A stretch of DNA of 64,000 nt from assembly GCA_016868355.1 (NCBI GenBank), contig VGHB01000007.1:84405-148404 (forward strand). Direction: 5' to 3'. Position numbers and translations under genes: made by a program. This document shows positions 702 through 51,038 of this stretch, piece by piece. The notes beneath the pieces were generated by a model that was not told the origin of the DNA, searched no databases, and saw nothing but the letters and a program-made list of their open reading frames with translations. Positions within the stretch are counted from its first letter, which is position 1, and each line of letters opens with the position of its first letter. Source of the stretch: Betaproteobacteria bacterium. GTDB taxonomy: Bacteria > Pseudomonadota > Gammaproteobacteria > Burkholderiales > Burkholderiaceae_C.

Positions 702-3700
702 TTAGACGGTGATGGCCATACCGCGATAGATACGTGCTCGGTAGCGTGAGTCCTCGGCGTCGGGCAGCGGCGCACCTGCCAGCAGCACGGCGCGGCCGAA
801 GCGTTTGACCTCCTCCAGATGCTCGGCCTGATTCCTGGGCTCCTCGCTGCGCGCGCGACGGGTTAGGTTGATCTGGTTCACCGGTACGTCGTGCACCAGC
901 CGCTCGTTTTCGACGGCCAGCGTCGCAGTGAAGGCGTGCAGCGTGGTCTTCACGAAGTTCGCAAGTGCGAAGCCAGCGCCACTGCTGTCGCCACCCACCG
1001 GCACGTCGGGAGATACGAGCACCAGCTGCGTGCCGTCGATCAGGCTGGCCTTACGCGCGACGCGGAAGTGGTGCGTGAGGTTGTCCTGCACCATCTGGCG
1101 GAACTCCTCAGGCGTCAGCGTCGGCGCATCCGGCGCGCCCGCCGGCGGGAACAGCTTGTCCGGCAACGGCACGAATGGCGTGTTGACGATCGTCGCCGGA
1201 TAGCCGTGCCGCGCCAGCGCCTGATCGAAACCGGTCTCCAGGTCGTCTCCGGTGATCACCGTGTGCAGCAGCTCCGCCGGAACGCCGCGCAGCGCCGAAC
1301 AGATCGCATCAGCGCCGGCTGCGGTGCGCGAGATCAGCACGACCCGGCCGACTTGACACTCGGTCACAAGTTGGCGCGCAGCCTCCGCGAGGTACTCGAC
1401 TAGGTACTCTCCGACGAGCCACACAGTACGGCCGCGCATCATGTCCAGCCGCTCGCGCTTCGCGCTGCCGAAGAGCTCGCGCTCAGTAATCGAGCGCTCC
1501 AGGCTCAGGCCACCGGAAGGCATGAAGGTCTCGCCGCTGACTGCGCGGTCGGCCAGGAAGTAAACGGTTGCAAGGGCGACCTCGGTCTCAGTGGGCATCT
1601 TTCCAAGGTGCAGCAGCGACAGCACGCCGTTGCGGACCTTCTTTGCCTCTTCACGGACTGCGGCCGGCGGCACGAAGGGTAGATCGTCTGGTGGCTCACG
1701 CTTCAGCCAGCCGCCATCCTGCCGGGCACCCCAATCGGGGCTGTCCAGGAATACGCCGCCGAGGCGCAGGCGTGCGACGAGCTGCGCAGCGATGGTCTCG
1801 CTAAGAAGGAACGCGCCCCAGGCGCAGTCGTCGGCGCGCTCGGCATGGCAGGCGATCGCCAGCTTGCGTAACTCGCTGGGCGCATCGCTGTCCATCGCCA
1901 GCGCAGGCACATCGTTACTGGCGAGCCGCTCGAGCAGCATCTCGACCCGCAGCCCGCGCCGCAAACCTTTGATCACAGCTGCATGTACCGCATTGAGCCT
2001 CTTGTTCTCGAGGATCAGGCGGCCCCGCCGCTCGAATAGGCCCGGCCGCGAACCGGTACCCTTTAGGCGTTCGCCTTCCACCGGGCCGGGCGCGATGGCA
2101 TTGATCTGCACCTTCGGGCCGAGAAAGCGCGCCATCGTTTCAACGATCGCGCGCTGGCCGGACTTACTCACCGCGTAGTCGCTGCGGTTCGGGTAGGCCA
2201 CCGCGAGGTACTTCTCGCCACCGAAATAGCTCGATACGTTGAGGACATAGCCGCTACCCTGCTTCTTCATCAGTGGCAGCACCTCGTGCATCAGCAGGTA
2301 GTTTGACACCAGGTTGGCATCAAGCGTACGGGTCCAGGCAGCTACTGGCATATCGACAGCCATCTGCTCGGCGCCCGACATACCGGCATTGTTGATCAGG
2401 TAGTCGATGCGGCCGAAGGCGGCCAACGTCGCATGAACCGCCGGGCGCAGCGTGGCCAGTTCGCCAACGTCGGTGTCAGGAAGAATCTGCACGCGCCGCT
2501 CGGCGCCGGAGTAGCCGATGTCCTCCAGCTCGGAGACGATGCGCCTGCGCATGGTCTCGAGCTCGCTGCGCCGCCGGGCGGTGATCATCACCCTCGCTCC
2601 GCCCAGCGCAAGCAGCCGTGCGACGCCGCCGCCGATGCCGGCCGAGCCACCGGTGATCAACGCGACCTTGCCGATGTGCAGACCGGCTAGGTTCTCTGTG
2701 AAGCCCACCGTCGCACGCTTGGCCCCGCTCGCTTCGGCAATGCTTGTCGGCAGGTACAGATTGATCTGCCGAATGCGCTGCTCCTTGAAGAGCAGCCGCG
2801 CGATGTGGCCGGCAGAGAAGGGCAGATTTTCAGTTTCCGCGTTCTCATAGCGGACGAGTTGGTTACCCCATTCGTGGAAACGACGACGGCCGAGCCTGAC
2901 GTCGACCTCGCTCTCGTCGCGCCAGACGCGGATCAGTTCTTCGACCGCAGCGCGCAGCAGGTTGGCCCAGCTGTTCGCGCCGCCGTCGCTGCCGTTGGTG
3001 ACGAACACGAAGCGCGGCTCACCGATCAGGTCGTCGCGGCCGCGCCAGTAGCGGCTGAGCTTGCGTGCCACCGAGATCGCGCCGCCCAGTTCCTCGTCAA
3101 CGAAGGCTTCCATATCCTCATCGCTGGCTGCGGCCAGCGGACCCTGGAAGCGGTCCGCCGCGTAGGCTGGCAGCACGATAGCCCCAGTGATCGGCCCGTG
3201 CAGATCGCTGGCCAGGGCGGCATCCATCGTCGCCGGCTCGGTACGATCGAACAGGCGCACATCGATACGCTCGGCAAGCGGCAGTCCGGCCAAGCGCTCC
3301 CGTGCCTCGGTGCAATCGGTCTCGCGCGCCAAGCCGAGGATCACGTGCGCACCCACGTCTAGCTGAAGCTTGGCGATACCCAACGCATCGTCGACCTGCT
3401 CGCCGGCAGCGATCAGCACGGTCTGGCCGTTTGCGTCCACGGTACGCAGCGTTGGCCGGTTCATCCAGGTGCTGCGGCTCTCGGCCGGCACCTTCATGCC
3501 GTGGGTGACCTCGAACTCGTGCGCGCTGAAGGCTGCCGACTCGTCACTGCCTAGGAATACGCAGGTGGAAGCTATGTCCTCCGGCGCCGGGAAGTCACGC
3601 TGCGGCAGGCCGTCGAAGGGCCGGGCCAGTGTCATCAGCCCAAAGAACTCGTTAGCAGTAGCGCCGGGGTCTGCGCCCTTGAGCTTGTCCATCGTTGCAA

Positions 3701-4367
3701 ATACGCTGCGGATGCGTTCGCTGCGGATCGGCCCCGGCAAGATCATGTTCACGCGTATGCCACGCTCGCCGAGTTCTTCGGCAACCTTTCTCGACAGCGC
3801 GTTCAGCGCCGCCTTGGGCACGACATAGGCGGTGCGTCCATAGTAGTGGGTACGGCTGAAGATCGTCGACACATTGATGACACTCGCTCCGGGCTGTAAG
3901 TGTTGGGCGGCGGCGCGCAGCAGGTTCCAAGACACTCCAAGGATGTTGCGCGTAGCCTGTGCCAGCGTCTCGGTGTCGAGGCTGCCTTCGGCACGCTGCG
4001 CGTCCAGTTCCTCGGGGGTCAGCGGCACCTTCTCGATCGGCTGCCGTGGTCCGGCTGAACCGGCGTTGTTGACCAGGATGTCGATACGGCCATGCTTGTC
4101 GATGACGGCGGCCACGCCTGCACGGATACTGTCGGCGTCGGCTCCGTCCATCACCACCGTGTCGGCCTGCGCCGGCGCGGCGGCAGTGTCCTTCAGCGCG
4201 GCGTCGCGTGCCTCCTTCAGGCGCTGGGCCGTGCGGCCCGACAACACAACGGTTGCCCCCTGCCGCAGGAAATGGCGGACGATTTCGCTGCCCAAGTTGC
4301 CGGCAGCGCCAGTGACCAGCGCCACCTTGCCAGCGAGGCGTCCTTGCGGTGCGACGGTATTGCCCAT
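702..4367 (-). CDS. mcr: Bifunctional malonyl-CoA reductase (two fused SDR halves)
   Basis: NADPH-dependent reduction of malonyl-CoA to malonate semialdehyde and on to 3-hydroxypropionate, the first committed step of the 3-HP bicycle. The protein has 1221 residues, about the length of Chloroflexus aurantiacus Mcr. The N-terminal half has a Rossmann motif (TGAAGNLG), NNAG and a YVVPK active-site pair; from about residue 555 a second unit starts with TGGSAGIGG, NNAGMSG, SSYFGG and YAVSK. In the Chloroflexus enzyme the C-terminal half reduces malonyl-CoA and the N-terminal half reduces the semialdehyde. The C-terminal end (HHFRVARK, ALANFVKTTLHAFTAT, DLTRRARSEEPR, ending RGMAITV) also matches that enzyme as I recall it. 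The start at 4367 is preceded by GGGAGA; an upstream in-frame ATG at 4442 lies inside pcs. Last of seven same-strand bicycle genes, 34 bp after pcs. Confidence 0.96.
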   Translation of the reverse strand: MGNTVAPQGRLAGKVALVTGAAGNLGSEIVRHFLRQGATVVLSGRTAQRLKEARDAALKDTAAAPAQADTVVMDGADADSIRAGVAAVIDKHGRIDILVNNAGSAGPRQPIEKVPLTPEELDAQRAEGSLDTETLAQATRNILGVSWNLLRAAAQHLQPGASVINVSTIFSRTHYYGRTAYVVPKAALNALSRKVAEELGERGIRVNMILPGPIRSERIRSVFATMDKLKGADPGATANEFFGLMTLARPFDGLPQRDFPAPEDIASTCVFLGSDESAAFSAHEFEVTHGMKVPAESRSTWMNRPTLRTVDANGQTVLIAAGEQVDDALGIAKLQLDVGAHVILGLARETDCTEARERLAGLPLAERIDVRLFDRTEPATMDAALASDLHGPITGAIVLPAYAADRFQGPLAAASDEDMEAFVDEELGGAISVARKLSRYWRGRDDLIGEPRFVFVTNGSDGGANSWANLLRAAVEELIRVWRDESEVDVRLGRRRFHEWGNQLVRYENAETENLPFSAGHIARLLFKEQRIRQINLYLPTSIAEASGAKRATVGFTENLAGLHIGKVALITGGSAGIGGGVARLLALGGARVMITARRRSELETMRRRIVSELEDIGYSGAERRVQILPDTDVGELATLRPAVHATLAAFGRIDYLINNAGMSGAEQMAVDMPVAAWTRTLDANLVSNYLLMHEVLPLMKKQGSGYVLNVSSYFGGEKYLAVAYPNRSDYAVSKSGQRAIVETMARFLGPKVQINAIAPGPVEGERLKGTGSRPGLFERRGRLILENKRLNAVHAAVIKGLRRGLRVEMLLERLASNDVPALAMDSDAPSELRKLAIACHAERADDCAWGAFLLSETIAAQLVARLRLGGVFLDSPDWGARQDGGWLKREPPDDLPFVPPAAVREEAKKVRNGVLSLLHLGKMPTETEVALATVYFLADRAVSGETFMPSGGLSLERSITERELFGSAKRERLDMMRGRTVWLVGEYLVEYLAEAARQLVTECQVGRVVLISRTAAGADAICSALRGVPAELLHTVITGDDLETGFDQALARHGYPATIVNTPFVPLPDKLFPPAGAPDAPTLTPEEFRQMVQDNLTHHFRVARKASLIDGTQLVLVSPDVPVGGDSSGAGFALANFVKTTLHAFTATLAVENERLVHDVPVNQINLTRRARSEEPRNQAEHLEEVKRFGRAVLLAGAPLPDAEDSRYRARIYRGMAITV

Positions 4368-4401
4368 TGAATTCTCCCGTTGCAGTGTGATGGCGTAGCG
4401 T

Positions 4402-7400
4402 TCAGGCCCGCGCGCCGGCAGCCCAGGCCTCAAACAGCGCATCGCGGCTGCGCAGCCCGGAGGCCGGCAATGCGTGGTTCACGACGTAGTTCGCGCCCTG
4501 ATGGCGGTTGTCCCACATGGCCTGGTGGGCAGAGGGCAGCTCGCGCCAGGGCACTACGGTCGGCTCGGTTACCTCCAGCAGTCCCGCCGAAACCATATCG
4601 TTCATCCGTGTCACCTCATAGGCGTTACAAAGATGTGTGCCGAGGATTGATGCGCTGGGCATCAGGATCCGGCGCTGCCGCGTCCACACCTGCGGCGCGT
4701 AGAAGGCATAACGCCGCCCAGCCATGTCCTCGCAGTAGGCGACGCGGCCAGTGAAGGGCTTGACCAGCGAGGTGCTGACACCCAGTGCATCGTGTCCGGC
4801 GCGCTCTAGGATGAGATCCGGAGCGCCGCGCGGATTGTCGGGGCTGCGCAGCAGCGCGCCGACAGCATTACCGAAGGGCTTAAGCGTGCGGTCCTGGAAG
4901 TCGCGTACGCCAGCACGGAAGGTCTCGATATCACGCTTGGCGTCGGCAAGGCGCGGCATCGTCGCCGGCCAGTCGAACTGCTGACCATAGCGGCGCCGCA
5001 GGTCCTCGATCGACACCACGCCGGCCACTGCGTCCTCGAAGCCGAGCGACTGCACGAACTCGCGCTGGGCATCGGTGCACGTGGCTACCACGGTGCGGGC
5101 ACCGACCGCGCGTACGGCCTCGATCATCTCCAGGCCCGCGGCGTCCATCAACGCGTCGCTGGCCACGCCGTAGTACAGCAGCACCGCCTCGCCCGGCCGC
5201 GCGCCGGCGCGCTGCAGCATCGCCTCTGGCGACGCTGCGCCCGGCTTGCCGACGAAGGTCAGGTGGTAGCCCGATGACGCGCCGTAAAATGCGAGCGCTC
5301 CGCCTTCGGCAAGCAGTTGGAAGGAGCGCGGGAACGCGGTTTCGCCAGCGTGCGACACAACGTAATCGGCCAGCCGACCGCCGTTTTGGCGGCGGAACTC
5401 ATCCAGCAAAGGCTCGCCGGCGGCAGCCCAGCCTGCCGGGTCGTGCTCGGGCACTGGTATGTACAGACCGCCGAAGCGCGACTCGCTGCGATCAAGTGCG
5501 CCGACCGCACCCTGAGTCAGCACAAAGGCTGCCCGCGCAGCACTGGAGACGCCGCCGGTAACCGCGCAGCCACTCTTCGTCGCTGCCTTCAGAGCTTCGA
5601 GGCCAGTACCGGTGGCGGCGCCCTCAACGAACATCGCGCGTCCAGGCGCGATTTTAAGCGTCGTGAACAGTGCGCGCGCAATGGTGCCGAGGTTAAGGAT
5701 ATACGAGCCCGCCTGCTCCAGTGTCAGGTCCTGTGGCAGCGGGTGAAGCTGCGGCGACTGCGTGATCAGGAATTGCGCGTGGCTGCCAGTGCGTGTCTCG
5801 TAGCCCTGGATCGAGAATCCGGCGTACATCGGGTCGCGGGCGGCCAGCGGGCTCAGCAGCTCGGACTGGCCAGAGTACACGGCGACCAGGTCGCCCACTT
5901 TGAGCCGGCCCTCGCGGCGCGCCTCGCTTCCGAGTGCGGCGACAAGCGCCACGCCGCCCGAGCCGGTCACCTGTACGTCCTCTTCATGGTTGTCGAAGGG
6001 CGACACCGGAATACCGGTGAGCGCCCAAAGGTCGTTGAAGTTCACCTCAGAGGCGAGCACGTAGACCAGAGCCTCGCTTGGCTCCGGCGCCTCGACCGGC
6101 ACGATCAACTCGACCTCGCTTCGCGCTGGCGCGCCGAAACGCGGCTCGCCGGTGGCCGGGTCGCGCGGCACACCGAACGCGAACTGCCACTGCGGCAGCG
6201 GCGTCACGCCGGGGTAGAACGGCGCGCCGCGTGGCAGCAGAGCGCCCTTGGCGAGCTGTGCGTCGGCCCAGTCGCCGAGTTCGGCGGCGATGCGCACGCC
6301 GTCGCGCCTGATCGGCAGCGCCGGACTTTTCTTGTCCATGAACTGCGCGATCCCCGTCTTTCCTCCCTCAGGGTCGACGATTGCCTGGGCGAATAGCTCG
6401 GCTTCGGTCGTGAGCCCAGCCTCCAGCCCCTGCGTCCAGCCGGTGCGAATTGCCTGCAGCGCGCGGTCCCGTGCGCCGGCGCGGCCGGCCCACTGGAGTT
6501 GTGCGTGGATGCGCTGCAGATGCGGGTCAGCAAGTGCGGCATCGAGCGACAGCGTCGACGGTTGGTTCCACGTCGCGAGGCTGGCGTGACGCTCGTGTAG
6601 CGCGCGACCAAGCGGGCTATCCTTACCCCCGGACAGGAACTCCCTCACGCGGGCGTGTGCCGCCGAAAGCGCGTCGTCGGCCGGGCTGGCGAGCTCGTCA
6701 ACCACGCCGAGCGCCAGCGCCTCGCGTCCCGAGGCGCTGCGCCCGCCAAGGATCAACTCGAGCGCATCGCGCAGACCGTCGGCACCGCGCCGGCCAGCCA
6801 GCAGACGCGGCAGCCGCTGGGTTCCGCCGTAGCCGGGCAGCAAGCGCAGCCGGATCTCAGGTTGGCCGAAGCGCGCGCCAGGCTCGGCCACCCGCCAGTG
6901 GCAGGCTAGAGCGAACTCCATGCCACCACCCAGAGCTACGCCTTGTATCGCAGCGATGCACGGTTTGTTCATGCGTTCGATCTTGCGAAACGCCAGATGT
7001 GCGTTGTTTGGCAGCGCGCGCGCCTCCTCGACGCTGTGAATGTCCTCCAGCATCTGGCGGATGTCGGCGCCAGCGACGAAGCTGGCTGTGCCCTGGCCGG
7101 TGAACACGACCGCCGCGACGTCGTCGCGCCGCGCGAGATGCTCGACCACGACCGTCAGCTCGTCGAGTGCGCGCTCATTCAGCGCATTTACTGGCGGGTT
7201 GGTCACCGTCACGGTGGCGACGCGCCGATCTTCCACCCCGTTGTACTGCACCGTGAAGTAGCGGTAGCGCTCGAACATCTGCTGCTCGTCGGCGAGCTGC
7301 TGGCGGCGCTTCCAATCCTCGATCACGCGCCGCAGCTCAGCGATCGATTCCGGATTCTTTAGCGTCGACGCATCGCCGACGTCCTGGTCCTCGACGAGAG

Positions 7401-9897: not shown

Positions 9898-9910
9898 CGG
9901 GAGGCCCCTC

Positions 9911-10969
9911 TCAGATACGGCGCGGCATTAGCACGGAGTAGTCGAGATCGAGCACGACGGCCGGGTCGGCCGGCGCCGATGCGTCGTGGCCCGGGAAGTC
10001 GGCGCAGGCTCGATCCTTGGTCGCCACGGTGCGCAGCCGCAGGGCCCCGATGTCGCCGCGGCCGGGCAGCGGGTCCTTCGCAAGCACCTCGCTCCAAGCG
10101 TAGACGGTGTCACCGCCGAAGCAAGGCGCAGTGTGCCGGCCCCCGTGGATCGCAGCGACGAGCAGCGCATTTGCGAGGCCGTTGAAGGACAGCGCCCGTG
10201 CCAGGCTAATCACATGCCCGCCGTAGACGATGCGCTTGCCGAAACGGCCCTCGCGCTCAACATGCTGGTTGAAGTGGACCTTGGCAGTGTTTTGGTACAG
10301 GCGGGTCGCAAGCATGTGCTCGGCGTCCTCGATCGTCATCCCGTCGACATGGTCGATGCGCTCGCCAACGGCATAGTCATCCCACAGGAACTCGCTGCCG
10401 GCGCGCGTGGCTTGGTAGCGGTCGCGGGTGAGCGTCAACGGACAGAGCATTTCAGCCACCGGCACCGATGTCGGAAGCTCGGGCACCACAGTCTCGGGGT
10501 TGGGCGCGTTGACGTCGCGCTTTCGCACCATCACCCAGCGGCAGTAGTCGAGTACCGTCTCGCCGCGCTGGTTCAGCCCAGTCGAATTCACATAGACGAC
10601 GCCCGTTTTGCCGTCCTTGTTAGGCTTCAGGCCGATCACCTTCGAGTCGGCGGTGATCGTGTCGCCCGGGAACACTGGGACGCCGAAGCGACCGCCGGCG
10701 TAGCCGAGGTTGGCGATCGCGTTCAGCGAAACGTCGGCCACGGTGCGACCGAACACCATGTGGAAGGCAAGCATCGAATCCACCGGCGCGCGTGGAAGGC
10801 CAAGAGACTGCGCAAAGGGGTCGGACGAGTGGATCGCAAAGCGCGGTCCGAACAGGGCGGTGTAGACCGCGACGTCGCCCTCAGTGATCGTGCGCGGAGG
10901 CGCGTGCACCAGCGTCTGACCAGTGCGGAAGTCCTCGAAGAAGTTGCCAGGGCGGGTTTTCGTCGTCAT
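9911..10969 (-). CDS. mch: Mesaconyl-C1-CoA hydratase (beta-methylmalyl-CoA dehydratase)
   Basis: Interconverts beta-methylmalyl-CoA and mesaconyl-C1-CoA in the glyoxylate-assimilation half of the bicycle. The 352-residue protein is a tandem MaoC/hot-dog hydratase: the N-terminal half has NFFEDFRTGQT and RTITEGDVAVYTALFG, and the C-terminal half has YQNTAKVHFNQH and RIVYGGHVISLARALSF, which holds the usual hydratase face. The end (VVLDLDYSVLMPRR) matches the Chloroflexus protein as I recall it. The same family also serves the ethylmalonyl-CoA pathway (Mcd/Mch), so the sequence alone does not separate the two uses; the neighbouring mct, meh and smt genes point to the bicycle. It sits 11 bp after mcl and 13 bp before pcs. 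Confidence 0.93.
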   Translation of the reverse strand: MTTKTRPGNFFEDFRTGQTLVHAPPRTITEGDVAVYTALFGPRFAIHSSDPFAQSLGLPRAPVDSMLAFHMVFGRTVADVSLNAIANLGYAGGRFGVPVFPGDTITADSKVIGLKPNKDGKTGVVYVNSTGLNQRGETVLDYCRWVMVRKRDVNAPNPETVVPELPTSVPVAEMLCPLTLTRDRYQATRAGSEFLWDDYAVGERIDHVDGMTIEDAEHMLATRLYQNTAKVHFNQHVEREGRFGKRIVYGGHVISLARALSFNGLANALLVAAIHGGRHTAPCFGGDTVYAWSEVLAKDPLPGRGDIGALRLRTVATKDRACADFPGHDASAPADPAVVLDLDYSVLMPRRI

Positions 10970-10980
10970 GCACGCCGCCT

Positions 10981-12024
10981 CTACAGGCCGTACGCCGCAG
11001 CCAGCGCCGGGTCTTTCTTGGCCACCAGCTTCGCGAGGTCGACGATTACCTTTGCCTGTTTCCAGGTGGCGTCGTCCTGCATCTTGCCGTCAATCATTGC
11101 AACGCCCGTGCCGTCGGGCATCGCGTCGAGGATGCGCCGGGCGAACAGTACCTCCTTCACATCAGGGCTGAACACGCGCTTAGCGATGGCGATCTGGTTC
11201 GGCGCCAGCGACCAGGCGCCGGTGCACCCCATGATGAAGGCGTTGCGGAACTGTGCCTCGCAGCCGGCTTCGTCCTTCAGGTCACCGAAGGGGCCATAGA
11301 AGGCGCGCAATCCGCTGGCGGCGCAGGCATCGACCATCTTCGCAAGTGTGTAGTGCCACAGGTCCTGCTGGGCGAAAGCGCGCGCCGGCTCGCCTTCCAC
11401 CGGGTCGGCCAGGACCCCGTAGAAGGGGTGGCCGCCGCCGACGCGCGTGGTCTTCATGCCGCGCGAGGCGGCCAGGTCCGCCGGGCCGAGGCTGAAGCCA
11501 TGCATGCGCGGGCTCGCAGTGGCGATCTGCTCGACGTTCTTCACCCCTTCAGCAGTCTCGAGCAGCGCGTGGATCAGGATCGGCTTCTTGATGCCGTTAC
11601 GCGCCTCGAGTTGGGCGAGGTACTGGTCGACAAAGTGGATGTCCCAGGGCCCCTCGACCTTGGGGATCATCACCGCGTCGAGGCGGTCGCCGCAGCCGGC
11701 GACAATCTCTGAAAGGTCGTCCAGGATCCACGGGCTGTTCAGGCAATTCACGCGCACCCAGAGCGCCACATCGCCCAGGCCGCCAGCGCGTACTCCTTCG
11801 ATGAAGCCCCGCCGCGCCGCCTGCTTTGCGTCCACGGGGATCGCGTCCTCAAGGTTGCCGCACAGCACATCGACCTGTTGTGCCGTGTCGGGCATGCGCG
11901 CGCGGATCTTATCGATGTGCGGCGGGAAGAAGTGCACCACGCGCTCGGGGCGCACCGGCAGTTCGCGAAAGGGAGCCGGTGCGCCGATGGCCAGCGGCTT
12001 GTAGAAATGATTCGGAAGCTTCAT
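10981..12024 (-). CDS. mcl: L-malyl-CoA / beta-methylmalyl-CoA / citramalyl-CoA lyase
   Basis: A CitE/HpcH-family magnesium-dependent lyase that in Chloroflexus does three jobs: it cleaves (S)-malyl-CoA to acetyl-CoA and glyoxylate, condenses glyoxylate with propionyl-CoA to beta-methylmalyl-CoA, and cleaves (S)-citramalyl-CoA to acetyl-CoA and pyruvate. The 347-residue protein shows the family landmarks [10 protein letters not shown] (metal and CoA region), [39 protein letters not shown] and [21 protein letters not shown] chose the ATG at 12024 because it gives the N terminus [14 protein letters not shown], which aligns with the Chloroflexus start; the ATG at 12039 adds five residues and neither has a strong ribosome site. 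Located between mct and mch with gaps of 24 and 11 bp. Confidence 0.93.
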
Positions 12025-12048
12025 GGAGCGGGTTGGCAAGGTGGGGAA

Positions 12049-13272
12049 TCAATCGTGCGGGCCGGCGACCACGCCGGCGTCATGCAGCGCGCCGACCTCG
12101 TGCGACGGCAGCCTGAGCAGCTCGAGCAGAATCTCATCGGTGTGCTCGCCGAGCCTCGGCGCCCGCTGCGCCGGCAGCCGACCGCCTCGGCCGAAGCCTA
12201 TCGGCACCGTCGGCGCCAGGTGAGCGCCGACGCCCGGCTGGTCGAGCGCCGTGAACAGCGGATTGTCGGTCGATAGGTCGGCGTCCTCGGCGAGTGCCTG
12301 CACCACGCTGCGGTACGGGCCCCAGGTGACGCGATGGGCGTCCAAGGCCGCGCGCACTTCAGCGAGCGTGCGTTCGGCGAACCAGGGCGCCAACGCCTCA
12401 GCGAGTGCGTCGCGCGCGAAGAAACGATGCCCTTCTTGCGCAAAATCGAGCCCAGTTCGCGCTGCAATCGCAGCCACCGCCTCGGCGCTGCCAGTGGCCT
12501 TGACCAGCGTGCTCCACTGCATGTCGGTCAGCCCGACGACCATCGCGCGGCGACCGTCTTTGGTCTCGAAGTCGCAGCCGAAGGCGCCGTACAGGTGATT
12601 GCCGCAGCGCGGCCGCTCAAATCCGTTGACCTGTGCCTCCGCGATCATGCCCAGGTGGCCGAGCATCGCAAGGCCCACGTCCTTCAGCGCCAGATGCACG
12701 AGTTGGCCCTCGCCGCAGCGGTCGCGATGGCGCAGCGCAGCCAGCAGCGCAATCACAATCTGGTGACCCGCGATTGCATCCCAAGCGGGGAAGACGTGGT
12801 TGGTCGGCTCGTCACAATTGTCTGGGCCAGTCAGCACGGGAAAGCCGATCTGCGGGTTGACGGTGTAATCGACCTCCGAACCACCGTCGCGTCGGCCGGT
12901 CAGGTTGATCATGATCACGTCGGCACGCTTGGCCGCGAGCCGGTCGTAGGCGAGCCAGCCGCGAGCTGGGAAGTTGGTGCTGAAGAGGCCTGCGTCCTTA
13001 CCCGGCGCGGTGATCAGCGCGGTGAGCAACTCCTGCCCGCGTTCCTGGCGTATGTCGACCGCAATTGAGCGCTTCCCCTTGTTCAGCCCGGCCCAGAACA
13101 GCGACACGCCGTCCTCGGTGACCGGCCAGCGGGCATGGTCAAGCCCGCCACCGATCGGGTCGAAGCGGATCACGTCGGCACCAAGCTGCGCGAGCGTCAT
13201 GCCGCCAAGCGGCGCAGCGACGAAGGCCGAGCCCTCGACGACGCGCAGGCCACGTAGGATACCGTCGCTCAT
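12049..13272 (-). CDS. mct: Mesaconyl-CoA C1-C4 CoA transferase (family III)
   Basis: Moves CoA within mesaconate from the C1 to the C4 carboxyl group, a reaction particular to the 3-HP bicycle. The 407-residue protein is a CaiB/BaiF (family III) CoA transferase beginning ILRGLRVVEGSAFVAAPLGG. It carries the distinctive stretches RFDPIGGGLDHARW, NKGKRSIAVDIR and HVFPAWDAIAGHQIV, the last holding the probable catalytic aspartate. It is clearly a different subgroup from the two Smt proteins next to it. The ATG at 13272 has AAAGGGG upstream; a longer frame to 13542 overlaps smtB and is rejected. Together with meh it is the best diagnostic of the bicycle rather than of the ethylmalonyl-CoA pathway. 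Confidence 0.92.
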   Translation of the reverse strand: MSDGILRGLRVVEGSAFVAAPLGGMTLAQLGADVIRFDPIGGGLDHARWPVTEDGVSLFWAGLNKGKRSIAVDIRQERGQELLTALITAPGKDAGLFSTNFPARGWLAYDRLAAKRADVIMINLTGRRDGGSEVDYTVNPQIGFPVLTGPDNCDEPTNHVFPAWDAIAGHQIVIALLAALRHRDRCGEGQLVHLALKDVGLAMLGHLGMIAEAQVNGFERPRCGNHLYGAFGCDFETKDGRRAMVVGLTDMQWSTLVKATGSAEAVAAIAARTGLDFAQEGHRFFARDALAEALAPWFAERTLAEVRAALDAHRVTWGPYRSVVQALAEDADLSTDNPLFTALDQPGVGAHLAPTVPIGFGRGGRLPAQRAPRLGEHTDEILLELLRLPSHEVGALHDAGVVAGPHD

Positions 13273-13330
13273 TGGGGGCCCCTTTGCCCGGGGCGCACCT
13301 GAAAGCGCAGCTGAGCGCAGCGGGGGGTGT

Positions 13331-14566
13331 TCATGCGATGGCCTTCTTCGCGCGAAGGTTCGCAATCGCATCATCGTCCAGGCCGATGATTTCGCGCAGG
13401 ATCTCGTCGGTGTGTTCGCCGAGCTTCGGGCCCAGCGAACGGATGCTGCCCGGCGTCTCCGAAAGCCTGGGAACCGGGGCGGGCACAACGACCTGCTCTC
13501 CGCTATCCGGTGCGTCGAATACCAGCAGGTTGCGTCGAGCATGGAACTGGCGGTCGCCGAAGATGTCCGCGATGTTGTTCAGCGGGCCGGCCGGCGTGTC
13601 GGTGGCATAACAGCGGGCTAGCAGTTCCTCGCGGTTCAGGCTGAGGCACCAGTCGCGCACGATTTCATTAACCTCGTGGCGGTGCTCCAAGCGCGTCCGC
13701 TGTTCGCCATAGGTGCTCGTGTGAGCCAGTTCGGGACGCCCCATGGCCTGGCACAGCCTCCCGAAAAGCATGTCGGTGGCACACGACAGCGCGACCCACT
13801 TGCTGTCCTTGGTCGCGAAATGACCGTGCGGCACGGCAAAGTCGTTGTGCGACGAGCCGGCGCGTTCACGTACCAGGCCGTACATCGCGAAGGCAGGCGC
13901 CAGTTCCTCGGTGCAACGGAACACCGACTCGTACAGCGCAGCGTCGACATACTGGCCCTCGCCAGTGGCATCACGGTGCTTCAGCGCCATCAGTACACCC
14001 AGGCAGCCGAACAGCCCGGTCATGTAGTCGCCAAGCGTCGTCGAGCCCGGCGTCACCGGCGTCCCCTTGGGCATGCCGGCCAGGTAGGCGATACCGCCCA
14101 CCGCGTGCGCCACGCGCGCAAACCCCGGCCGGTCGGCGTAGGGACCCGTCTGGCCGTAACCAGTGACGCGCAGCATCACCAGCCGGGGGTTGATCTGCCG
14201 CAACACCTCCCAGCCCAGACCCCACTTCTCGAGGGTGCCGGTGCGAAAGTTCTCGCACACCACGTCGGCCTCGGCGACGAGCTTCTTGAAAACCTCGGCG
14301 CCCTCGGGCGTGCGCAGTTCCAGCGTGATCGAGCGCTTGTTGCGGCCCTCGCTCAGCCAGGTGAGCGTGTCGCCGCGCACCGACGGCGTGCCGAAGCGGC
14401 GCAGGGCGTCACCGCCATCCGGATGCTCAAGCTTGATCACATCGGCACCGAACTCGCCGAGCAGCGTTGCACAGAAAGGCGCGGCAATGACGGTGGCCAT
14501 ATCGATCACACGCAGGCCGGCCAGGGGAAGAGGCGTCGATGGCAGGGAGACGGGGGCCGGGCTCAT
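13331..14566 (-). CDS. smtB: Succinyl-CoA:(S)-malate CoA transferase subunit B
   Basis: A family III CoA transferase of 411 residues that, with SmtA, activates malate to malyl-CoA using succinyl-CoA, closing the first cycle and producing the substrate for glyoxylate release. Landmarks are [58 protein letters not shown] and [12 protein letters not shown], whose aspartate is the probable acyl-accepting residue. The ending [19 protein letters not shown] is typical. The assignment of B rather than A is by resemblance to the Chloroflexus subunit I recall ([29 protein letters not shown]). The gap to smtA upstream is 16 bp and to mct downstream 58 bp, consistent with one operon. Confidence 0.88.
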
Positions 14567-14582
14567 GAGAGGCTCCTCGCGT

Positions 14583-15815
14583 TCACACGATGCGCTGCTG
14601 GCGCAGCCGCTGGAGATCTTCCGCCTGCATTCCGAGCAAGTCTTGCAGCACTTCGGCGGTGGCGTTGCCCAGCGTAGGGCCCAGGTTGGTGATGCGTCCG
14701 GGCGTAGCCGACAGCTTGGGGATTACGTTGGGCACCACCACCTCGCCCAGCCCGTAGGCGGGCATGCGCGCGAGGTCGTCGCGAGCGGCGAAGTGCTCGT
14801 CGGCGAAGATGTCAGCGATTGAGTTGACTTTGCCCACCGGGACCTCGGCGTCGAGGCACTTCTGCAACACCTCGTTACGTTCCATCGAACCCACCCAGGC
14901 GGTAACGGTACGGTTAACCTCGTCGCGCGCGGCGAGCCGCTTACGCTGGTCGCCCCACTTCGATGCCGAGGCGAGCTCAGGCTCGCCCATTGCCTGCGCC
15001 AGTCGCTCGAACATCTTGTCGGTGGTGCAGGCGATCGCGATCCACTTGTCGTTGGCGGTCTTGAAGTGGCCATGCGGGCAGGCTACAAAGCTGCCCGAGC
15101 CCTCGCGCTCACGTACTGTGCCGTGTAGGCCGTAGGCTGCGGCGATCTCCTCGAGCACGCGAAACACTGTCTCGTAGATGCCCACGTCGATGACCTGGCC
15201 GCGACCGGTGCGTTCGGCATGGCGCAGCGCAACCATCACGCCGATCGAGCCGAATAGGCTGGCAATGTAGTCGCCAAGCGGTACCGTGCCGGGCAATACA
15301 GGAGTCTCGCCCGGGAAGCCGGCCAGGTAATTGAGCCCACCGAAGGCCTGCGCGATGTGCGCGAAGCCGCTGCGACGGCGGTACGGGCCAGTCTGGCCGT
15401 AGCCGGTGACACGCAGCATCACGAGCTTCGGGTTGCGCGCACGGATCGCATCCCAGGTTAGCCCCCAGCTTTCGAAGGTGCCCGGGCGGAAGTTCTCGAC
15501 CAGCACGTCGCTTTTCTCGAGCAGGCGCATGAAGAGTTCCGCGCCCTCGGGCTGCAGCAGGTCAATCGTCACTGAGCGCTTGTTGCGGCTCTCGCTCAGC
15601 CAAGCGAGCGTGGCATCAGGGCGTTCGGTAGCCGTACCGAACCGGCGCATCGGGTCGCCGCCGATCGGGTGTTCGACCTTGATCACCTCGGCACCGAATT
15701 CGGCCAGCAAGGTCGCAGCGAATGGGCCAGCCAGGAAGTTGCCGACGTCGACCACGCGCACGCCGGCTAGCGGCATAGGCGCAGCAACTGTGTGGGGGTC
15801 AGTGGAGGTACTCAC
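14583..15815 (-). CDS. smtA: Succinyl-CoA:(S)-malate CoA transferase subunit A
   Basis: Partner of SmtB and first gene of the minus-strand operon. It is a family III CoA transferase with [55 protein letters not shown] and [17 protein letters not shown] (probable catalytic aspartate). The start is uncertain. The GTG at 15815 gives 410 residues and a short leader of the same size as in SmtB; the ATG at 15776 gives 397 residues and begins directly at PLAGVRV. Neither has a strong Shine-Dalgarno match. A longer frame reaching 15986 overlaps meh on the other strand and is rejected. A and B are similar to each other, as expected for duplicated subunits of a hetero-oligomer. Confidence 0.87.
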
Positions 15816-15925
15816 GTCGAGTGTCACAAAACTACAACGGAGGTTAGGCTTGCGTCGGCGGGTCTGAGACGGGTGTAATCCCCAAGAATCGCTAAGAATT
15901 ACTGAACCAACCATAGGAAACGCTG
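15816..15925. promoter_or_regulatory. Divergent control region between smtA and meh
   Basis: This 110-bp gap between the diverging smtA and meh genes must hold the promoters for both arms of the cluster. It contains two direct AAGAAT hexamers at 15884 and 15894, exactly ten bases apart, and just after them AATTACTGAACC. It is noticeably AT-richer than its surroundings next to meh. Paired, helically phased half-sites are the usual layout for a LysR-type activator, and a CbbR-like gene lies on the meh side. No exact -35/-10 pair can be assigned with confidence. The ribosome site of meh (AGGAAA) is at the right edge. Confidence 0.5.
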
Positions 15926-16765
15926 ATGGATCAAGATTTCCGTGAATGGATCGGACGGACCGAGGAGGTTCATGACCCGCTGCCATTCACGCAGGCACAG
16001 GCAGCCCAGGCGGCACTCGGCGACACCTCGCAGCCGATCATCGACGGCATGCCTTTGCCGCTGCCGTGGCACTGGTTTCACTTCTTGCCACGGGCACCGC
16101 AGGCCGAGCTCGACGACGATGGTCACCCTAAACGCGGCGGCTTCCTGCCCCCGATTCCGCTGCCGCGGCGCATGTTCGCCGGCGCGCGGCTTCAGGTGCA
16201 CCGGCCGCTGGTGGTGGGCGTGCCCGCGGTGCGCCTTGGCACCCTGCGGGATGTAGCGCATAAGGCCGGCAAGAGCGGCGCGCTCGCCTTCGTTACCGTG
16301 TCGTACCGTTTCGAACAGCGCGGAGCTCTGTGCCTGGAGGAGGAGCAGGACATCGTCTACCGCGAACCTGGTGCGCCGGTGTCGGCGCCGGTGCCGGGCC
16401 CGCAGCCGGCGCTGCCTGCGGGCAGCACCGTGCGCACCGTGCTGCCGGACTCGCGCCTGCTTTTCCGCTTCTCCGCGCTGACCTTTAACGCACACCGCAT
16501 TCACTACGACCGCGACTACGCGACCGGCGTCGAGGGCTACCCAGGCCTGGTTGTGCACGGGCCGCTGACGGCCGTGCTGCTCCTGCAACTCGCGCGCCAG
16601 ACCACGACACGGCCGATCGCCGGCTTCAGCTTCCGCGGCCAGGCGCCGCTGTTCGACTGCGGGCCGGTGCGGCTGGCCGCCAGCCCAGACGGCGACCGCC
16701 TGAGCCTTGCCGCGCACGGGCCAGACGGTGCGCTGGCGCTGTCAGCCCAGGCAACGCTAGGCTGA
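15926..16765 (+). CDS. meh: Mesaconyl-C4-CoA hydratase
   Basis: Hydrates mesaconyl-C4-CoA to (S)-citramalyl-CoA, which the lyase Mcl then splits to acetyl-CoA and pyruvate. The 279-residue protein is a FAS1-like/HTD2-type hot-dog dehydratase: an N-terminal half with DGMPLPLPWHWFHFLP and GGFLPPIPLPRRMFAGARL, and a C-terminal half with the catalytic motif FNAHRIHYD at residues 187-195, followed by GYPGLVVHGPLTA. The ATG at 15926 follows AGGAAACGCTG. It is the only enzyme gene of the cluster on the plus strand, so it is co-transcribed with the LysR gene 8 bp downstream and not with the other seven. Related dehydratases act in fatty-acid and aromatic metabolism, but the position beside mct/smt makes Meh the best call. 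Confidence 0.9.
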   Translation: MDQDFREWIGRTEEVHDPLPFTQAQAAQAALGDTSQPIIDGMPLPLPWHWFHFLPRAPQAELDDDGHPKRGGFLPPIPLPRRMFAGARLQVHRPLVVGVPAVRLGTLRDVAHKAGKSGALAFVTVSYRFEQRGALCLEEEQDIVYREPGAPVSAPVPGPQPALPAGSTVRTVLPDSRLLFRFSALTFNAHRIHYDRDYATGVEGYPGLVVHGPLTAVLLLQLARQTTTRPIAGFSFRGQAPLFDCGPVRLAASPDGDRLSLAAHGPDGALALSAQATLG

Positions 16766-16773
16766 CAACGCCC

Positions 16774-17718
16774 ATGGCCGCGCCACCGCCGTCCGCCAAG
16801 AGCTTGCCGGGTTCGGCGATGCACGTGACGTTGCGCCAGCTGCGCATCTTCGACGCAGTGGCAAGGCACGGCTCGATCTCGCGCGCGGCCGCTGAACTGC
16901 ACCTGACGCAGCCGGCGGTGTCAATGCAGGTGAAGCAACTTGAGTCGCTGGTCGGGCTGAGCCTGGTCGAGCAGATCGGCAAACGGCTGTTTCTCACCCA
17001 GGCCGGCACGGAACTGCGCGAGCACGCACGTGATATTTCGATGCGCGTCGGCGACCTCGGCGCAGCGATGGACCAGCTTCGCGGCCTTGAGCGCGGACTG
17101 CTTCGCCTGGCGGTGGTATCGACCGCGAACTACTTCCTGCCCAGCATCATTGCCGACTTCAGCCGCCGCCACCCGGGCGTGCGGGTCAGCCTGCAGGTGG
17201 CTAACCGCGAGGTCGTACTCGCCTCGCTGGCCGCCAACACGACCGACCTCGCGATCACGGGCCGGCCGCCGGACAGCCCGGACATCGTCGCACAACACTT
17301 CATGGATAACCCGCTGGTCGTCATCGCACCGCCAGAACACCCCCTCGTGGGCTGCGGGACAGTGCCGCTGGCGCGGCTGGCGCGCGAAACCCTGGTAGTG
17401 CGCGAACCCGGCTCGGGCACGCGCGCCGCGATGGAGCGTCACTTCGCAGCCCATGGCCTGGAGGTGAGGCCGGGTTGCGAACTCGGAACCAACGAGGCGC
17501 TAAAGCAAGCGGTACGCGCAGGCCTTGGCCTGGGTATGGTCTCGCTGCAGACCATTGAACTCGAGCTTGCAGCGCGATGCCTGGTCGCGCTGCCAATCGA
17601 GGGCTTCCCGATCGTGCGCCAGTGGTACGTGGTGCACCGCACGCGCGGGCGGCTCTCCGCCGCGGCGCAGATCTTTCGCGGCATGCTGCTGGCACTCGAT
17701 CCGGCCTCTGGCGGCTAA
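16774..17718 (+). CDS. CbbR-like LysR-type transcriptional regulator
   Basis: A full-length LysR-type regulator (314 residues). The winged-helix domain reads MHVTLRQLRIFDAVARHGSI then AAAELHLTQPAVSMQVKQLE, a wording characteristic of the CbbR branch that controls Calvin-cycle operons and the related CysB-like regulators. The effector domain includes VSTANYFLPSIIADFSRRHP and NEALKQAVRAGLGLGMVS. The first ATG at 16774 is given; the ATG at 16819 (starting MHVTLRQ) matches the usual CbbR start and may be the real one. It follows meh by 8 bp and is the last gene before a strong terminator. I infer that it controls the 3-HP operon from the smtA-meh gap; the co-inducer is unknown. Confidence 0.88.
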   Translation: MAAPPPSAKSLPGSAMHVTLRQLRIFDAVARHGSISRAAAELHLTQPAVSMQVKQLESLVGLSLVEQIGKRLFLTQAGTELREHARDISMRVGDLGAAMDQLRGLERGLLRLAVVSTANYFLPSIIADFSRRHPGVRVSLQVANREVVLASLAANTTDLAITGRPPDSPDIVAQHFMDNPLVVIAPPEHPLVGCGTVPLARLARETLVVREPGSGTRAAMERHFAAHGLEVRPGCELGTNEALKQAVRAGLGLGMVSLQTIELELAARCLVALPIEGFPIVRQWYVVHRTRGRLSAAAQIFRGMLLALDPASGG

Positions 17719-17755: not shown

Positions 17756-17865
17756 GGCCCCGCACCACGCGGGGCTTTTTGCTGTGGGCTCCTGACTGAC
17801 CCGATGGCAACCCACCCCCGAAATCCGTCTCAAACCCCGTTTCGTCTAAGAACCTCCTGACTTTT
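17756..17865. repeat. Left copy of a 110-bp inverted repeat
   Basis: This stretch is a diverged, inverted copy of 28898-29006. Shared blocks, in order, are the hairpin GCCCCGC-ACCAC-GCGGGGC, then GGGCTCCTGACTG, GTCTCA, and CCTCCTGACTTTT. The middle has drifted between the copies. The right copy is the sequence directly downstream of tRNA-Ser, so this copy probably came from such a tRNA flank. It marks the boundary between the 3-HP cluster and the accessory segment to the right. Confidence 0.75.
17757..17780 (+). terminator. Rho-independent terminator after the LysR gene
   Basis: A perfect seven-base stem, GCCCCGC / GCGGGGC with a five-base ACCAC loop, is followed directly by TTTTT. It lies 38 bp after the stop of the LysR-type gene and should end the meh-lysR transcript. 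The hairpin is also part of the inverted repeat shared with the tRNA-Ser flank. Confidence 0.88.
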
Positions 17866-28897: not shown

Positions 28898-29006
28898 AAA
28901 AGTCAGGAGGTCCTGAGACAAAGCCCGTCTCAGACGCCCTTTCGGCTACGCTGGCAGAAGACGCAGTCAGGAGCCCATAGCAAGAAGCCCCGCGTGGTGC
29001 GGGGCT
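28898..29006. repeat. Right copy of the 110-bp inverted repeat
   Basis: The inverted partner of 17756-17865. It begins AAAAGTCAGGAGG, passes GAGAC and CAGTCAGGAGCCC, and ends in the hairpin with GCCCCGC and GCGGGGC arms. It lies directly downstream of tRNA-Ser (on the tRNA strand), so this is probably the native locus. The two copies bracket an 11-kb accessory segment. Confidence 0.75.
28987..29005 (-). terminator. Terminator hairpin of tRNA-Ser
   Basis: Read on the minus strand, the seven-base stem GCCCCGC / GCGGGGC with loop ACCAC is followed by TTCTTGC. It lies 47 bp after the tRNA-Ser 3' end and should terminate that transcript. The T-run is weaker than in the left copy. Confidence 0.7.
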
Positions 29007-29051: not shown

Positions 29052-29143
29052 TGGCGGGCAAGGAGGGATTCGAACCCTCGGTACTGGAATACCAGTACGC
29101 CGGATTTCGAATCCGGTGCATTCGACCACTCTGCCACCTGCCC
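29052..29143 (-). tRNA. tRNA-Ser (anticodon CGA)
   Basis: A 92-nt class II tRNA including an encoded CCA. The acceptor arms GGGCAGG and CTTGCCC pair, with one G-U. The anticodon stem CCGGA/TCCGG closes the loop TTCGAAA with anticodon CGA. A long variable arm (GTACTGG/CCAGTAC) and the T arm GAGGG-TTCGAAT-CCCTC follow. It reads serine UCG codons. It sits 77 bp upstream of the serS stop codon end and marks the junction of the GC-rich accessory region with the core genes. Confidence 0.96.
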
Positions 29144-50906: not shown

Positions 50907-50960
50907 TTGAACATTATGGAGATGGTCATTCCGTGGGTCGAATCGGAAACACGGTTACTT

Positions 50961-50994
50961 TTAAACGACCTCCGTTATGTAACCAAGTTACAAT
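50961..50994 (+). promoter_or_regulatory. Candidate ppc promoter with overlapping dyad
   Basis: In the hemC-ppc gap a TACAAT box (50989-50994) lies 45 bp before the ppc start, with TTAAAC about 22 bp upstream as a weak -35. A perfect dyad GTAAC-CAA-GTTAC (50979-50991) overlaps the -10 box, a layout suited to repressor binding. A further GGTTAC is at 50954. The region is AT-rich against its surroundings. Confidence 0.4.
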
Positions 50995-51038
50995 TTCGGA
51001 AGGTTGGTCACCGATATCCCCGCCTGCGTGAGGCCCCC

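What the first reader, a model, noticed from the sequence alone, without database searches (positions are those of the whole stretch)
702..16765. All bicycle-specific genes of the 3-hydroxypropionate CO2-fixation pathway in one block of a Burkholderiales genome
mcr, pcs, mch, mcl, mct, smtB, smtA and meh are all intact and contiguous. In Chloroflexus aurantiacus, where the bicycle was established, mcr and pcs lie apart from the others as far as I recall. Here every reaction not shared with general metabolism is encoded in 16 kb, next to core genes of Burkholderiales type. This predicts autotrophic or mixotrophic CO2 fixation, or co-assimilation of acetate, propionate and glyoxylate, in a betaproteobacterium without needing RuBisCO.
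Basis: partly seen in the sequence, partly recalled or inferred. Interest (0 to 1): 0.96.

Follow-up and report, generated by a model that had tools for sequence, protein, structure and literature searches.

The report
Calvin cycle swapped for 3-hydroxypropionate bicycle
A betaproteobacterium with photosynthesis genes carries homologues of all the enzymes specific to the 3-hydroxypropionate CO2-fixation bicycle in one 17-kilobase block, while only a deletion scar remains where three of four relatives in its genus keep RuBisCO, so it has likely exchanged the Calvin cycle for a horizontally acquired bicycle, a switch that would be testable in the laboratory.

Summary
Seven genes form one likely operon (gaps 11-58 bp). 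Elsewhere the genome has methylmalonyl-CoA mutase with PccB-like, PccA-like and epimerase-like genes, AccA/AccD-like genes and a photosynthesis gene cluster, but no RuBisCO match. The occurrence itself is not new: Garritano et al. 2022 reported the bi-cycle in Burkholderiales MAGs with predicted photosynthesis. Not found in my literature searches: (1) the block is a discrete cassette, with homology ending at the mcr stop (two genomes) and the lysR end (three), and its closest copy lies in another genus, against the photosynthesis-gene tree. (2) Three of four congeners carry RuBisCO and none shows the cassette. At the syntenic locus this genome keeps PRK, FBPase and CbbR but has lost cbbX, cbbS and all but 27 codons of cbbL. 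(3) Four other genomes with Mct and Pcs show RuBisCO deletions with other endpoints while keeping PRK. Calvin-to-bicycle replacement in a phototroph is the best reading. Flux is untested; a photoheterotroph using the block for co-assimilation is the main rival, and two genomes hold both pathways.

The parts
702..4367 (-). mcr, bifunctional malonyl-CoA reductase (1221 aa)
   Evidence: 8hi4, 1182 bits over residues 9-1221; Y181xxxK and Y731xxxK, one per SDR half
4402..9897 (-). pcs, trifunctional propionyl-CoA synthase (1831 aa)
   Evidence: 6eqo, 2749 bits; 91% to G387
9911..10969 (-). mch, beta-methylmalyl-CoA (mesaconyl-C1-CoA) dehydratase/hydratase
   Evidence: 4e3e, 597 bits
10981..12024 (-). 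mcl, malyl-/beta-methylmalyl-/citramalyl-CoA lyase
   Evidence: 4l7z, 659 bits
12049..13272 (-). [quoted passage not shown]
   Evidence: Asp165 invariant in 16 of 16 aligned; that it is catalytic is recalled
13331..14566 (-). smtB, succinyl-CoA:malate CoA transferase subunit
14583..15776 (-). smtA, succinyl-CoA:malate CoA transferase subunit (start uncertain, 15776-15827)
15777..15925 (.). divergent promoter region smtA/meh with a footprint shared with six other Burkholderiales loci
   Evidence: window, L025-L029, L031; by eye, no statistics
15926..16765 (+). meh, mesaconyl-C4-CoA hydratase
   Evidence: 8huc/8khg, 206 bits
16774..17718 (+). lysR, CbbR-like regulator that belongs to the cassette; about 45% identical to the congeners' CbbR
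   Evidence: (CbbR model 285 bits, below its 450-bit cut-off)
703..17706 (.). extent of the cassette: homology begins at the mcr stop (G387, G009) and ends at the lysR end (G387, G009, L028)

Best explanation
The block is a likely horizontally acquired 17-kb cassette that encodes homologues of all enzymes specific to the 3-hydroxypropionate bicycle plus a CbbR-like regulator, and it is predicted to fix CO2 in place of the Calvin cycle, whose RuBisCO genes are deleted at their syntenic site in this genome. Predicted route: acetyl-CoA is carboxylated to malonyl-CoA; Mcr and Pcs reduce it to propionyl-CoA; PCC, epimerase and B12-dependent mutase (one operon on contig C15) make succinyl-CoA; SmtAB, succinate dehydrogenase and fumarase make malyl-CoA; Mcl releases acetyl-CoA and glyoxylate; Mcl, Mch, Mct and Meh then join glyoxylate to propionyl-CoA and yield pyruvate. 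Energy would come from the type II reaction centre encoded on contig C8, and the CbbR-like LysR would switch the divergent smtA and meh promoters. Shown: gene presence and intactness, purifying selection, cassette boundaries, tree conflict, RuBisCO deletion. Inferred: transfer, replacement, regulation. Untested: activity and flux.
For: All bicycle-specific genes intact in one block under purifying selection. Shared steps: mutase-meaB-pccB-pccA-epimerase-like operon and sdhA, AccA/AccD-like matches. No RuBisCO match in the genome. Photosynthesis cluster with pufLMC, puhA, bchXYZ, bchLNB, bchH, acsF. Cassette edges at the mcr stop against two genomes and at the lysR end against three. Nearest copy is in another genus, G387, at 82-96% per protein, while the six photosynthesis and three cbb proteins that could be compared share 42-85%; the cassette tree pairs window and G387 at 100/100, the photosynthesis tree places the window with congeners at 100/100 and rejects window+G387, p-AU 1.6e-50. 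None of 4 congeners has Mct of this type or Pcs; 3 of 4 have RuBisCO at 437-441 bits. At the syntenic locus on C9 this genome keeps cbbP, cbbF, cbbR and flanks, with cbbX and cbbS gone and 27 cbbL codons left. Four further genomes with Mct and Pcs have other RuBisCO deletions beside kept PRK: G402, G009, G353, G405.
Against: No activity, expression or isotope data. Fumarase, AccB/AccC, carbonic anhydrase, isocitrate lyase and electron-donor genes were not searched. Absence of RuBisCO is part of a gene-based definition of aerobic anoxygenic phototrophs (PMC7947762, passages), so loss need not follow from the cassette. Congener G002 lacks cbbLSX at the same locus and shows no Pcs, Mct or PufLM (it is 76% complete). 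G387 and G250 keep RuBisCO together with the bicycle genes. PRK is kept and constrained without RuBisCO, which a plain replacement does not explain. How often other phototrophic Burkholderiales keep PRK without RuBisCO was not surveyed. In G405 the smtA/smtB region is reduced, so its bicycle may not be complete.
Confidence: 0.58

Rival explanations
1. The organism is an aerobic photoheterotroph. It lost RuBisCO for unrelated reasons, and the cassette serves mainly to co-assimilate acetate, propionate, glycolate/glyoxylate and 3-hydroxypropionate and to dispose of electrons, with little net autotrophy.
For: It meets the gene-based definition of an aerobic anoxygenic phototroph (PMC7947762). The bi-cycle is described as a way to co-assimilate organic substrates in Chloroflexus (PMC8307300; PMC9802188). 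G106 keeps only the glyoxylate half, with PufLM and no Pcs, RuBisCO or PRK; G339 has Mct and PufLM and likewise no Pcs, RuBisCO or PRK. Congener G002 lost RuBisCO with no cassette found. G387 and G250 hold the bicycle genes beside RuBisCO, so the block is not only a RuBisCO substitute.
Against: mcr and pcs, needed to make propionyl-CoA from CO2 and acetyl-CoA, are kept under strong constraint, lie in the same operon and were transferred with it. Related genomes with the block mostly lack an intact RuBisCO (2 of 13 have a full one, a third is cut by a contig end), though several are incomplete.
Confidence: 0.32
2. The cassette and the RuBisCO deletion are artefacts of a draft assembly or of a contaminating contig.
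For: The genome is a 40-contig draft. G002, G173 and G353 are drafts of 76, 83 and 93% completeness, G353 with 7% contamination.
Against: The cassette's contig goes on into genes syntenic with congeners. The deletion lies inside a 136-kb contig whose both flanks match congeners. The cbbL remnant carries 6 amino-acid changes from G004 in 27 codons, where congeners G004 and G001 are identical, which a mis-join would not give. Contamination is rated 0.21%.
Confidence: 0.04
3. Vertical inheritance: the genus ancestor had both pathways, the congeners lost the cassette and this species lost RuBisCO.
For: G387 holds both today; the congener genomes are 76-90% complete, so single absences are weak.
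Against: The cassette tree pairs this genome with G387 against the photosynthesis tree. dS in the cassette between the two genera (0.54-0.62) is about the same as or lower than dS of cbb genes between this genome and its own congeners (0.53-1.03). No shared flanks were found.
Confidence: 0.06

Closest known systems
3-hydroxypropionate bi-cycle of Chloroflexus aurantiacus
   Same: Homologues of all bicycle-specific enzymes, with the bifunctional Mcr and trifunctional Pcs; the same meh/smtA-smtB-mct-mcl-mch order is seen in the related Chloroploca loci L034 and L038; type II reaction centre phototroph.
   Different: mcr and pcs join the operon here, whereas they lie apart in Chloroflexus; a CbbR-like lysR belongs to the unit; the host is a betaproteobacterium whose photosynthesis genes lie in a cluster.
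Burkholderiales and Gemmatimonadota MAGs with the 3HP bi-cycle (Garritano et al. 2022, PMC9802188)
   Same: Same pathway, same order Burkholderiales, photosynthesis predicted, glyoxylate-half genes in one operon (section 7 read).
   Different: The section read does not mention mcr and pcs in the cluster, a regulator, transfer between genera or RuBisCO deletion; its supplement could not be read here. Whether this genome is among theirs is unknown.
Methylibium sp. NZG (L026; G009/G400) and Rubrivivax MAG C4_MAG_00063 (L028; G402)
   Same: Same nine genes in the same order (mcr cut by the locus end; full length in G009), PufLM, no RuBisCO match.
   Different: Other genera; no shared flanks found; RuBisCO deletions with other endpoints.
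Partial 3HP bi-cycle of Ca. Kentron, Ca. Accumulibacter and others (Seah et al. 2019, PMC6593406)
   Same: The glyoxylate half (meh, mct, mcl, mch; smt in some; for Accumulibacter).
   Different: No Pcs in the three Accumulibacter genomes searched (G413, G414, G416); [quoted passage not shown] here both are present.
Calvin cycle versus 3HP in phototrophic Chloroflexota (Oscillochloris and Kouleothrix versus Chloroflexus and Roseiflexus)
   Same: Related phototrophs that differ in carbon-fixation pathway, with transfer as the driver (PMC5826079, passages).
   Different: Here the difference lies within one genus and the RuBisCO scar is still readable.

Membership tests
3-hydroxypropionate bi-cycle | Bifunctional malonyl-CoA reductase with both SDR halves | tested here: met
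3-hydroxypropionate bi-cycle | Full-length trifunctional propionyl-CoA synthase | tested here: met
3-hydroxypropionate bi-cycle | Mcl, Mch, Mct, Meh and SmtAB | tested here: met
   (SmtAB by identity to clustered relatives only)
3-hydroxypropionate bi-cycle | Propionyl-CoA carboxylase, methylmalonyl-CoA epimerase, methylmalonyl-CoA mutase | tested here: met
   (mutase above its cut-off; PccB and PccA named from family and operon; epimerase by Glyoxalase_4 family, size and operon position only)
3-hydroxypropionate bi-cycle | Acetyl-CoA carboxylase, succinate dehydrogenase, fumarase | tested here: inconclusive
   AccA/AccD-like matches and sdhA found; AccB, AccC and fumarase not searched
3-hydroxypropionate bi-cycle | Enzyme activities and 13C incorporation | not testable with these tools
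   needs a culture or expressed proteins
Calvin cycle | RuBisCO large subunit | tested here: not met
   no match; 27-codon remnant
Calvin cycle | Phosphoribulokinase | tested here: met
   (C9:39430-40056, 232 bits)
Aerobic anoxygenic phototroph (gene definition of PMC7947762) | Type II reaction centre, BchLNB and AcsF present, RuBisCO and/or PRK absent | tested here: met
   AcsF by Rubrerythrin family and position in the cluster; PRK is present
Horizontally transferred cassette | Gene tree in conflict with the host's other genes and sharp homology edges | tested here: met
Horizontally transferred cassette | Integrase, transposase or plasmid carrier | tested here: inconclusive
   none among the window proteins annotated (20 of 43 predicted non-cassette ORFs) or 3 of 14 ORFs of the left neighbour L012; no relative above 60% on PLSDB plasmids

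The most novel reading that the evidence does not exclude
A portable CO2-fixation cassette with its own CbbR-like regulator moves between phototrophic Burkholderiales and has displaced RuBisCO at least five separate times, leaving PRK, FBPase and often CbbR behind; PRK may be kept because its product RuBP still serves as a carbon-status signal to CbbR-type regulators.
Probability: 0.28. Interest if true: 0.9.

Novelty: new variant of a known kind. Interest (0 to 1): 0.76.

Why it matters
Natural exchange of one whole autotrophic pathway for another has been argued from wider comparisons, as in Chloroflexota (PMC5826079). Here members of one genus differ in pathway and the deleted RuBisCO locus is still readable, so the order and cost of the exchange can be studied. 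A 17-kb natural unit with all bicycle-specific genes and a regulator is also a ready test piece for expressing the bicycle (oxygen-tolerant, as recalled) in a laboratory betaproteobacterium. A 2021 review states that data on the activity of the full cycle in purple non-sulfur bacteria are not available (PMC8307300, passages).

Tried and rejected
Plasmid carriage: Pcs matched 7 of 72,556 plasmid records, all haloarchaeal, at 50-55%; Mct matched 24, all under 60%; rejected as the source. Exact empty site in congeners: the right side is conserved from tRNA-Ser/SerS (window about 29,050) onward in G003 and G004, but G003 has other genes beyond it and G004's contig ends there; left open. tblastx of flanks gave only scattered short low-identity hits and was ignored (the first 60 rows were printed, all from the left flank). 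RNA families: only three tRNAs in 118,000 bases. A LysR site was looked for by eye only. A Fisher test on remnant decay (p 0.0045) rests on 27 residues and compares two different genes, so it is not relied on. Papers PMC5635909 and PMC3165406 are not held, so the 2017 HGT study of the bicycle and the 2011 co-assimilation study are known only through passages of other papers and from recall. That I found no paper on the RuBisCO scars or the nine-gene cassette rests on the ten searches in this library; of the papers listed I opened some and read passages, one section or an abstract, never a whole text; supplements could not be read.
Full report
1. Observation. The window lies at G000:C7:84405-148404 of a 2.70-Mb draft genome (40 contigs, rated 99.99% complete, 0.21% contaminated). 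The reported genes are present and open: mcr 702-4367, pcs 4402-9897, mch 9911-10969, mcl 10981-12024, mct 12049-13272, smtB 13331-14566 and smtA 14583-15776 on the minus strand, meh 15926-16765 on the plus strand, followed by lysR 16774-17718. The seven minus-strand genes are 11-58 bp apart; meh and lysR are 8 bp apart; 149 bp separate smtA and meh. Identity was tested against solved structures: Mcr 8hi4/8hjw, Pcs 6eqo, Mct 8apq/7xkg, Mcl 4l7z, Mch 4e3e, Meh 8huc/8khg. SmtA found only other CoA transferases there and SmtB was not searched there; both are named by their 74% and 78% identity to the neighbours of mct in a Chloroploca cluster (L034). Both SDR halves of Mcr have the Y-xxx-K motif (its catalytic role is recalled).

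2. The rest of the pathway. On contig C15 (L009) one operon holds methylmalonyl-CoA mutase (1280 bits, NF006944), MeaB, a PccB-like and a PccA-like subunit and a 155-aa Glyoxalase_4 protein that I read as the epimerase from family, size and place; sdhA and citrate synthase lie nearby. Carboxyltransferase matches of AccA and AccD type are on C1 and C15 (the naming is inferred from the part matched). PEP carboxylase is in the window at 50796-53849. Fumarase, AccB, AccC, carbonic anhydrase and isocitrate lyase were not searched.

3. Energy and RuBisCO. The genome has two Photo_RC genes inside a photosynthesis gene cluster on C8: bchI, bchD, a hemA-like gene, bchXYZ, pufL, pufM, pufC, crt genes, an AcsF-type Rubrerythrin protein, puhA, a PucC-family protein, bchM, bchL, bchH, bchB, bchN (gene names inferred from families and order; I did not check every bacteriochlorophyll step). 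No RuBisCO large-subunit match was found.

4. Distribution. In 399 sampled genomes of the family, 31 have an Mct-like protein at E <= 1e-100; 9 of these share at least 73% identity with the window's Mct and 22 share 48-58%. Seven of the nine also have Pcs (G000, G387, G250, G395, G009, and in two pieces G353 and G173); G106 and G339 do not. Among 80 named Mct loci from other genomes (the best 80 of a capped list), pcs is seen inside the fetched stretch in 7 (L026-L031, L057) and mcr in 5 (L026, L028, L030, L031, L057); many stretches are too short to tell. The order of the window is repeated in Methylibium sp. NZG (L026) and a Rubrivivax MAG (L028), with a reduced smt region in L031, and in a Gemmatimonadota MAG (L057) where no lysR match was seen; L030 has pcs-mcr before meh. 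In the Chloroflexota and Accumulibacter loci no pcs or mcr lies within the stretch, though the Chloroflexota genomes G408, G410, G412 and G419 have Pcs elsewhere. Of 41 handles searched, three look like duplicates by identical coordinates (G400 = G009, G401 = G353, G404 = G250), which leaves 38 genomes: 24 have Pcs and 27 have a reaction-centre match. G250 has the bicycle genes but no reaction-centre match (79% complete).

5. The cassette has moved. The DNA homology begins at window 703-704 against G387 and G009 (for L028 the mcr end is cut by the locus) and ends at 17,692-17,706 against all three; no shared flank was found in the stretches at hand, which are a few kb for G387 and L028 and only about 0.6 kb on the lysR side for G009. 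Cassette proteins are 82-96% identical between G000 and G387, another genus, while the six photosynthesis proteins found in the G387 stretch share 63-85% and the three cbb proteins 42-73%; between G000 and congener G004 nine photosynthesis proteins share 79-96%; the other photosynthesis queries lay outside the fetched stretches. In a tree of Mct+Mcl+Mch the window and G387 are sisters at 100/100; in a tree of PufL+PufM+BchY+BchZ the window lies with G004 and G003 at 100/100 and a window+G387 clade is rejected (p-AU 1.6e-50). dS in the cassette between the two genera is 0.54-0.62, against 0.53-1.03 for cbb genes between G000 and its congeners. The direction of transfer, and whether a third donor gave it to both, is not settled.

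6. The RuBisCO scar. None of four congeners shows Pcs or this Mct (completeness 76, 78, 83 and 90%). Three of them (G001, G003, G004) have RuBisCO at 437-441 bits. In G004 the locus reads cbbR, then on the other strand cbbL-cbbS-cbbX-p245-cbbF-cbbP-p101. In this genome the same locus on C9, with syntenic flanking genes, keeps p101 (85%), cbbP (95%), cbbF (87%) and cbbR (91%) full length, has a partial, diverged match to p245, no cbbX or cbbS match, and 27 codons of cbbL (residues 87-113). The remnant differs from G004 at 6 of 27 residues where G001 and G004 agree at all 27 and G003 differs at 3, so the loss is probably not brand new. PRK, FBPase and CbbR remain constrained (dN 0.02-0.14 at dS 0.53-1.03).

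7. Other bicycle genomes. Thirteen distinct Burkholderiales or unplaced proteobacterial genomes among the handles have both this type of Mct and Pcs: G000, G387, G250, G353, G009, G173, G395, G399, G402, G403, G405, G406, G407 (G407 is titled only Gammaproteobacteria; mcr was not checked in all). Full RuBisCO: G387 and G250; G399 has a 91% cbbL cut by the contig end. Resolved deletions on a contig with PRK: G000; G402 (cbbR next to cbbF, 149 bp, no L, S or X); G009 (a 41-residue cbbX piece, then p245, cbbF, cbbP); G353 (cbbL 8-191 running out of frame into cbbS 40-144, then cbbX, F, P); G405 (only cbbL 404-end joined to part of cbbR, with cbbS, X, F, P; a distant RuBisCO-like protein at 26% elsewhere). 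The endpoints all differ. G173 has PRK and FBPase on a contig cut within cbbX, and only a RuBisCO-family match below cut-off elsewhere. G395, G403, G406 and G407 have no PRK above cut-off and no full RuBisCO; G406 has a partial RuBisCO-family match of 46.8 bits. The completeness of genomes reached through named loci is not told. Against a strict link: congener G002 lacks cbbLSX at this locus with no cassette found, and G387 and G250 hold both pathways.

8. Interpretation. The genes give a complete set of bicycle-specific enzymes in a probable phototroph that has lost RuBisCO. Net autotrophy by the bicycle is the reading I favour; co-assimilation by a photoheterotroph is the main rival and the two can hold together. 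PRK kept without RuBisCO is unexplained. In Rhodobacter sphaeroides PRK is reported as an intermediate in a signalling pathway that represses cbb genes (PMC4806589, abstract), which suggests, without proof, a signal role here; that RuBP acts on CbbR is recalled.

9. Prior work. Garritano et al. 2022 reported 3HP bi-cycle genes in Burkholderiales families Ga0077523 and Burkholderiaceae with predicted photosynthesis (PMC9802188; section 7 read). Seah et al. 2019 listed partial pathways including Accumulibacter (PMC6593406; passages). The gene set as such is therefore not new; the single nine-gene unit, its transfer and the RuBisCO scars were not found in my ten literature searches.

Noticed in passing
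G000:C9:39430-42885 (L188:5191-8848): PRK, FBPase and CbbR are kept full length and constrained although RuBisCO is deleted.
   Followed up: partly
window 17757-17798 and 28964-29005: A 42-nt inverted repeat, 95% complementary, brackets an 11-kb G+C-rich segment with an ABC transporter, isochorismatase-family protein, MASE1 histidine kinase and response regulator; a second pair lies at 17841-17865 / 28898-28922.
   Followed up: no
window 29052-29143: tRNA-Ser(CGA) beside serS marks the edge of synteny with congeners G003 and G004.
   Followed up: partly
L199 (G002:C463) 11131-13338: A congener lacks cbbL, cbbS and cbbX at the same locus, but no Pcs, Mct or PufLM was found in its 76%-complete genome.
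   Followed up: partly
L160 (G106:C13:22000-41999), G339: Two genomes of genus g103 carry PufLM and bicycle-type Mct but no Pcs, RuBisCO or PRK; the glyoxylate-half cluster (mch, mcl, mct, smtB, smtA, meh) was seen in G106 and not fetched for G339.
   Followed up: no
plasmid records CP095391, CP095395, NZ_CP084883, NZ_CP099392, NZ_CP095398: Pcs homologues of about 54-55% identity lie on large haloarchaeal plasmids.
   Followed up: no
L031:9162-9981 (G405): smtA and smtB are reduced to one CoA-transferase stretch of about 820 bp, and the pcs match is broken near residue 274; real or an assembly collapse of paralogues.
   Followed up: no
window 15777-15925: The smtA/meh intergenic region shares a footprint with six other Burkholderiales loci, by eye.
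   Followed up: partly
L013:8577-11891 (G000:C20): Fused isobutyryl-CoA mutase IcmF, the second mutase of the genome.
   Followed up: no
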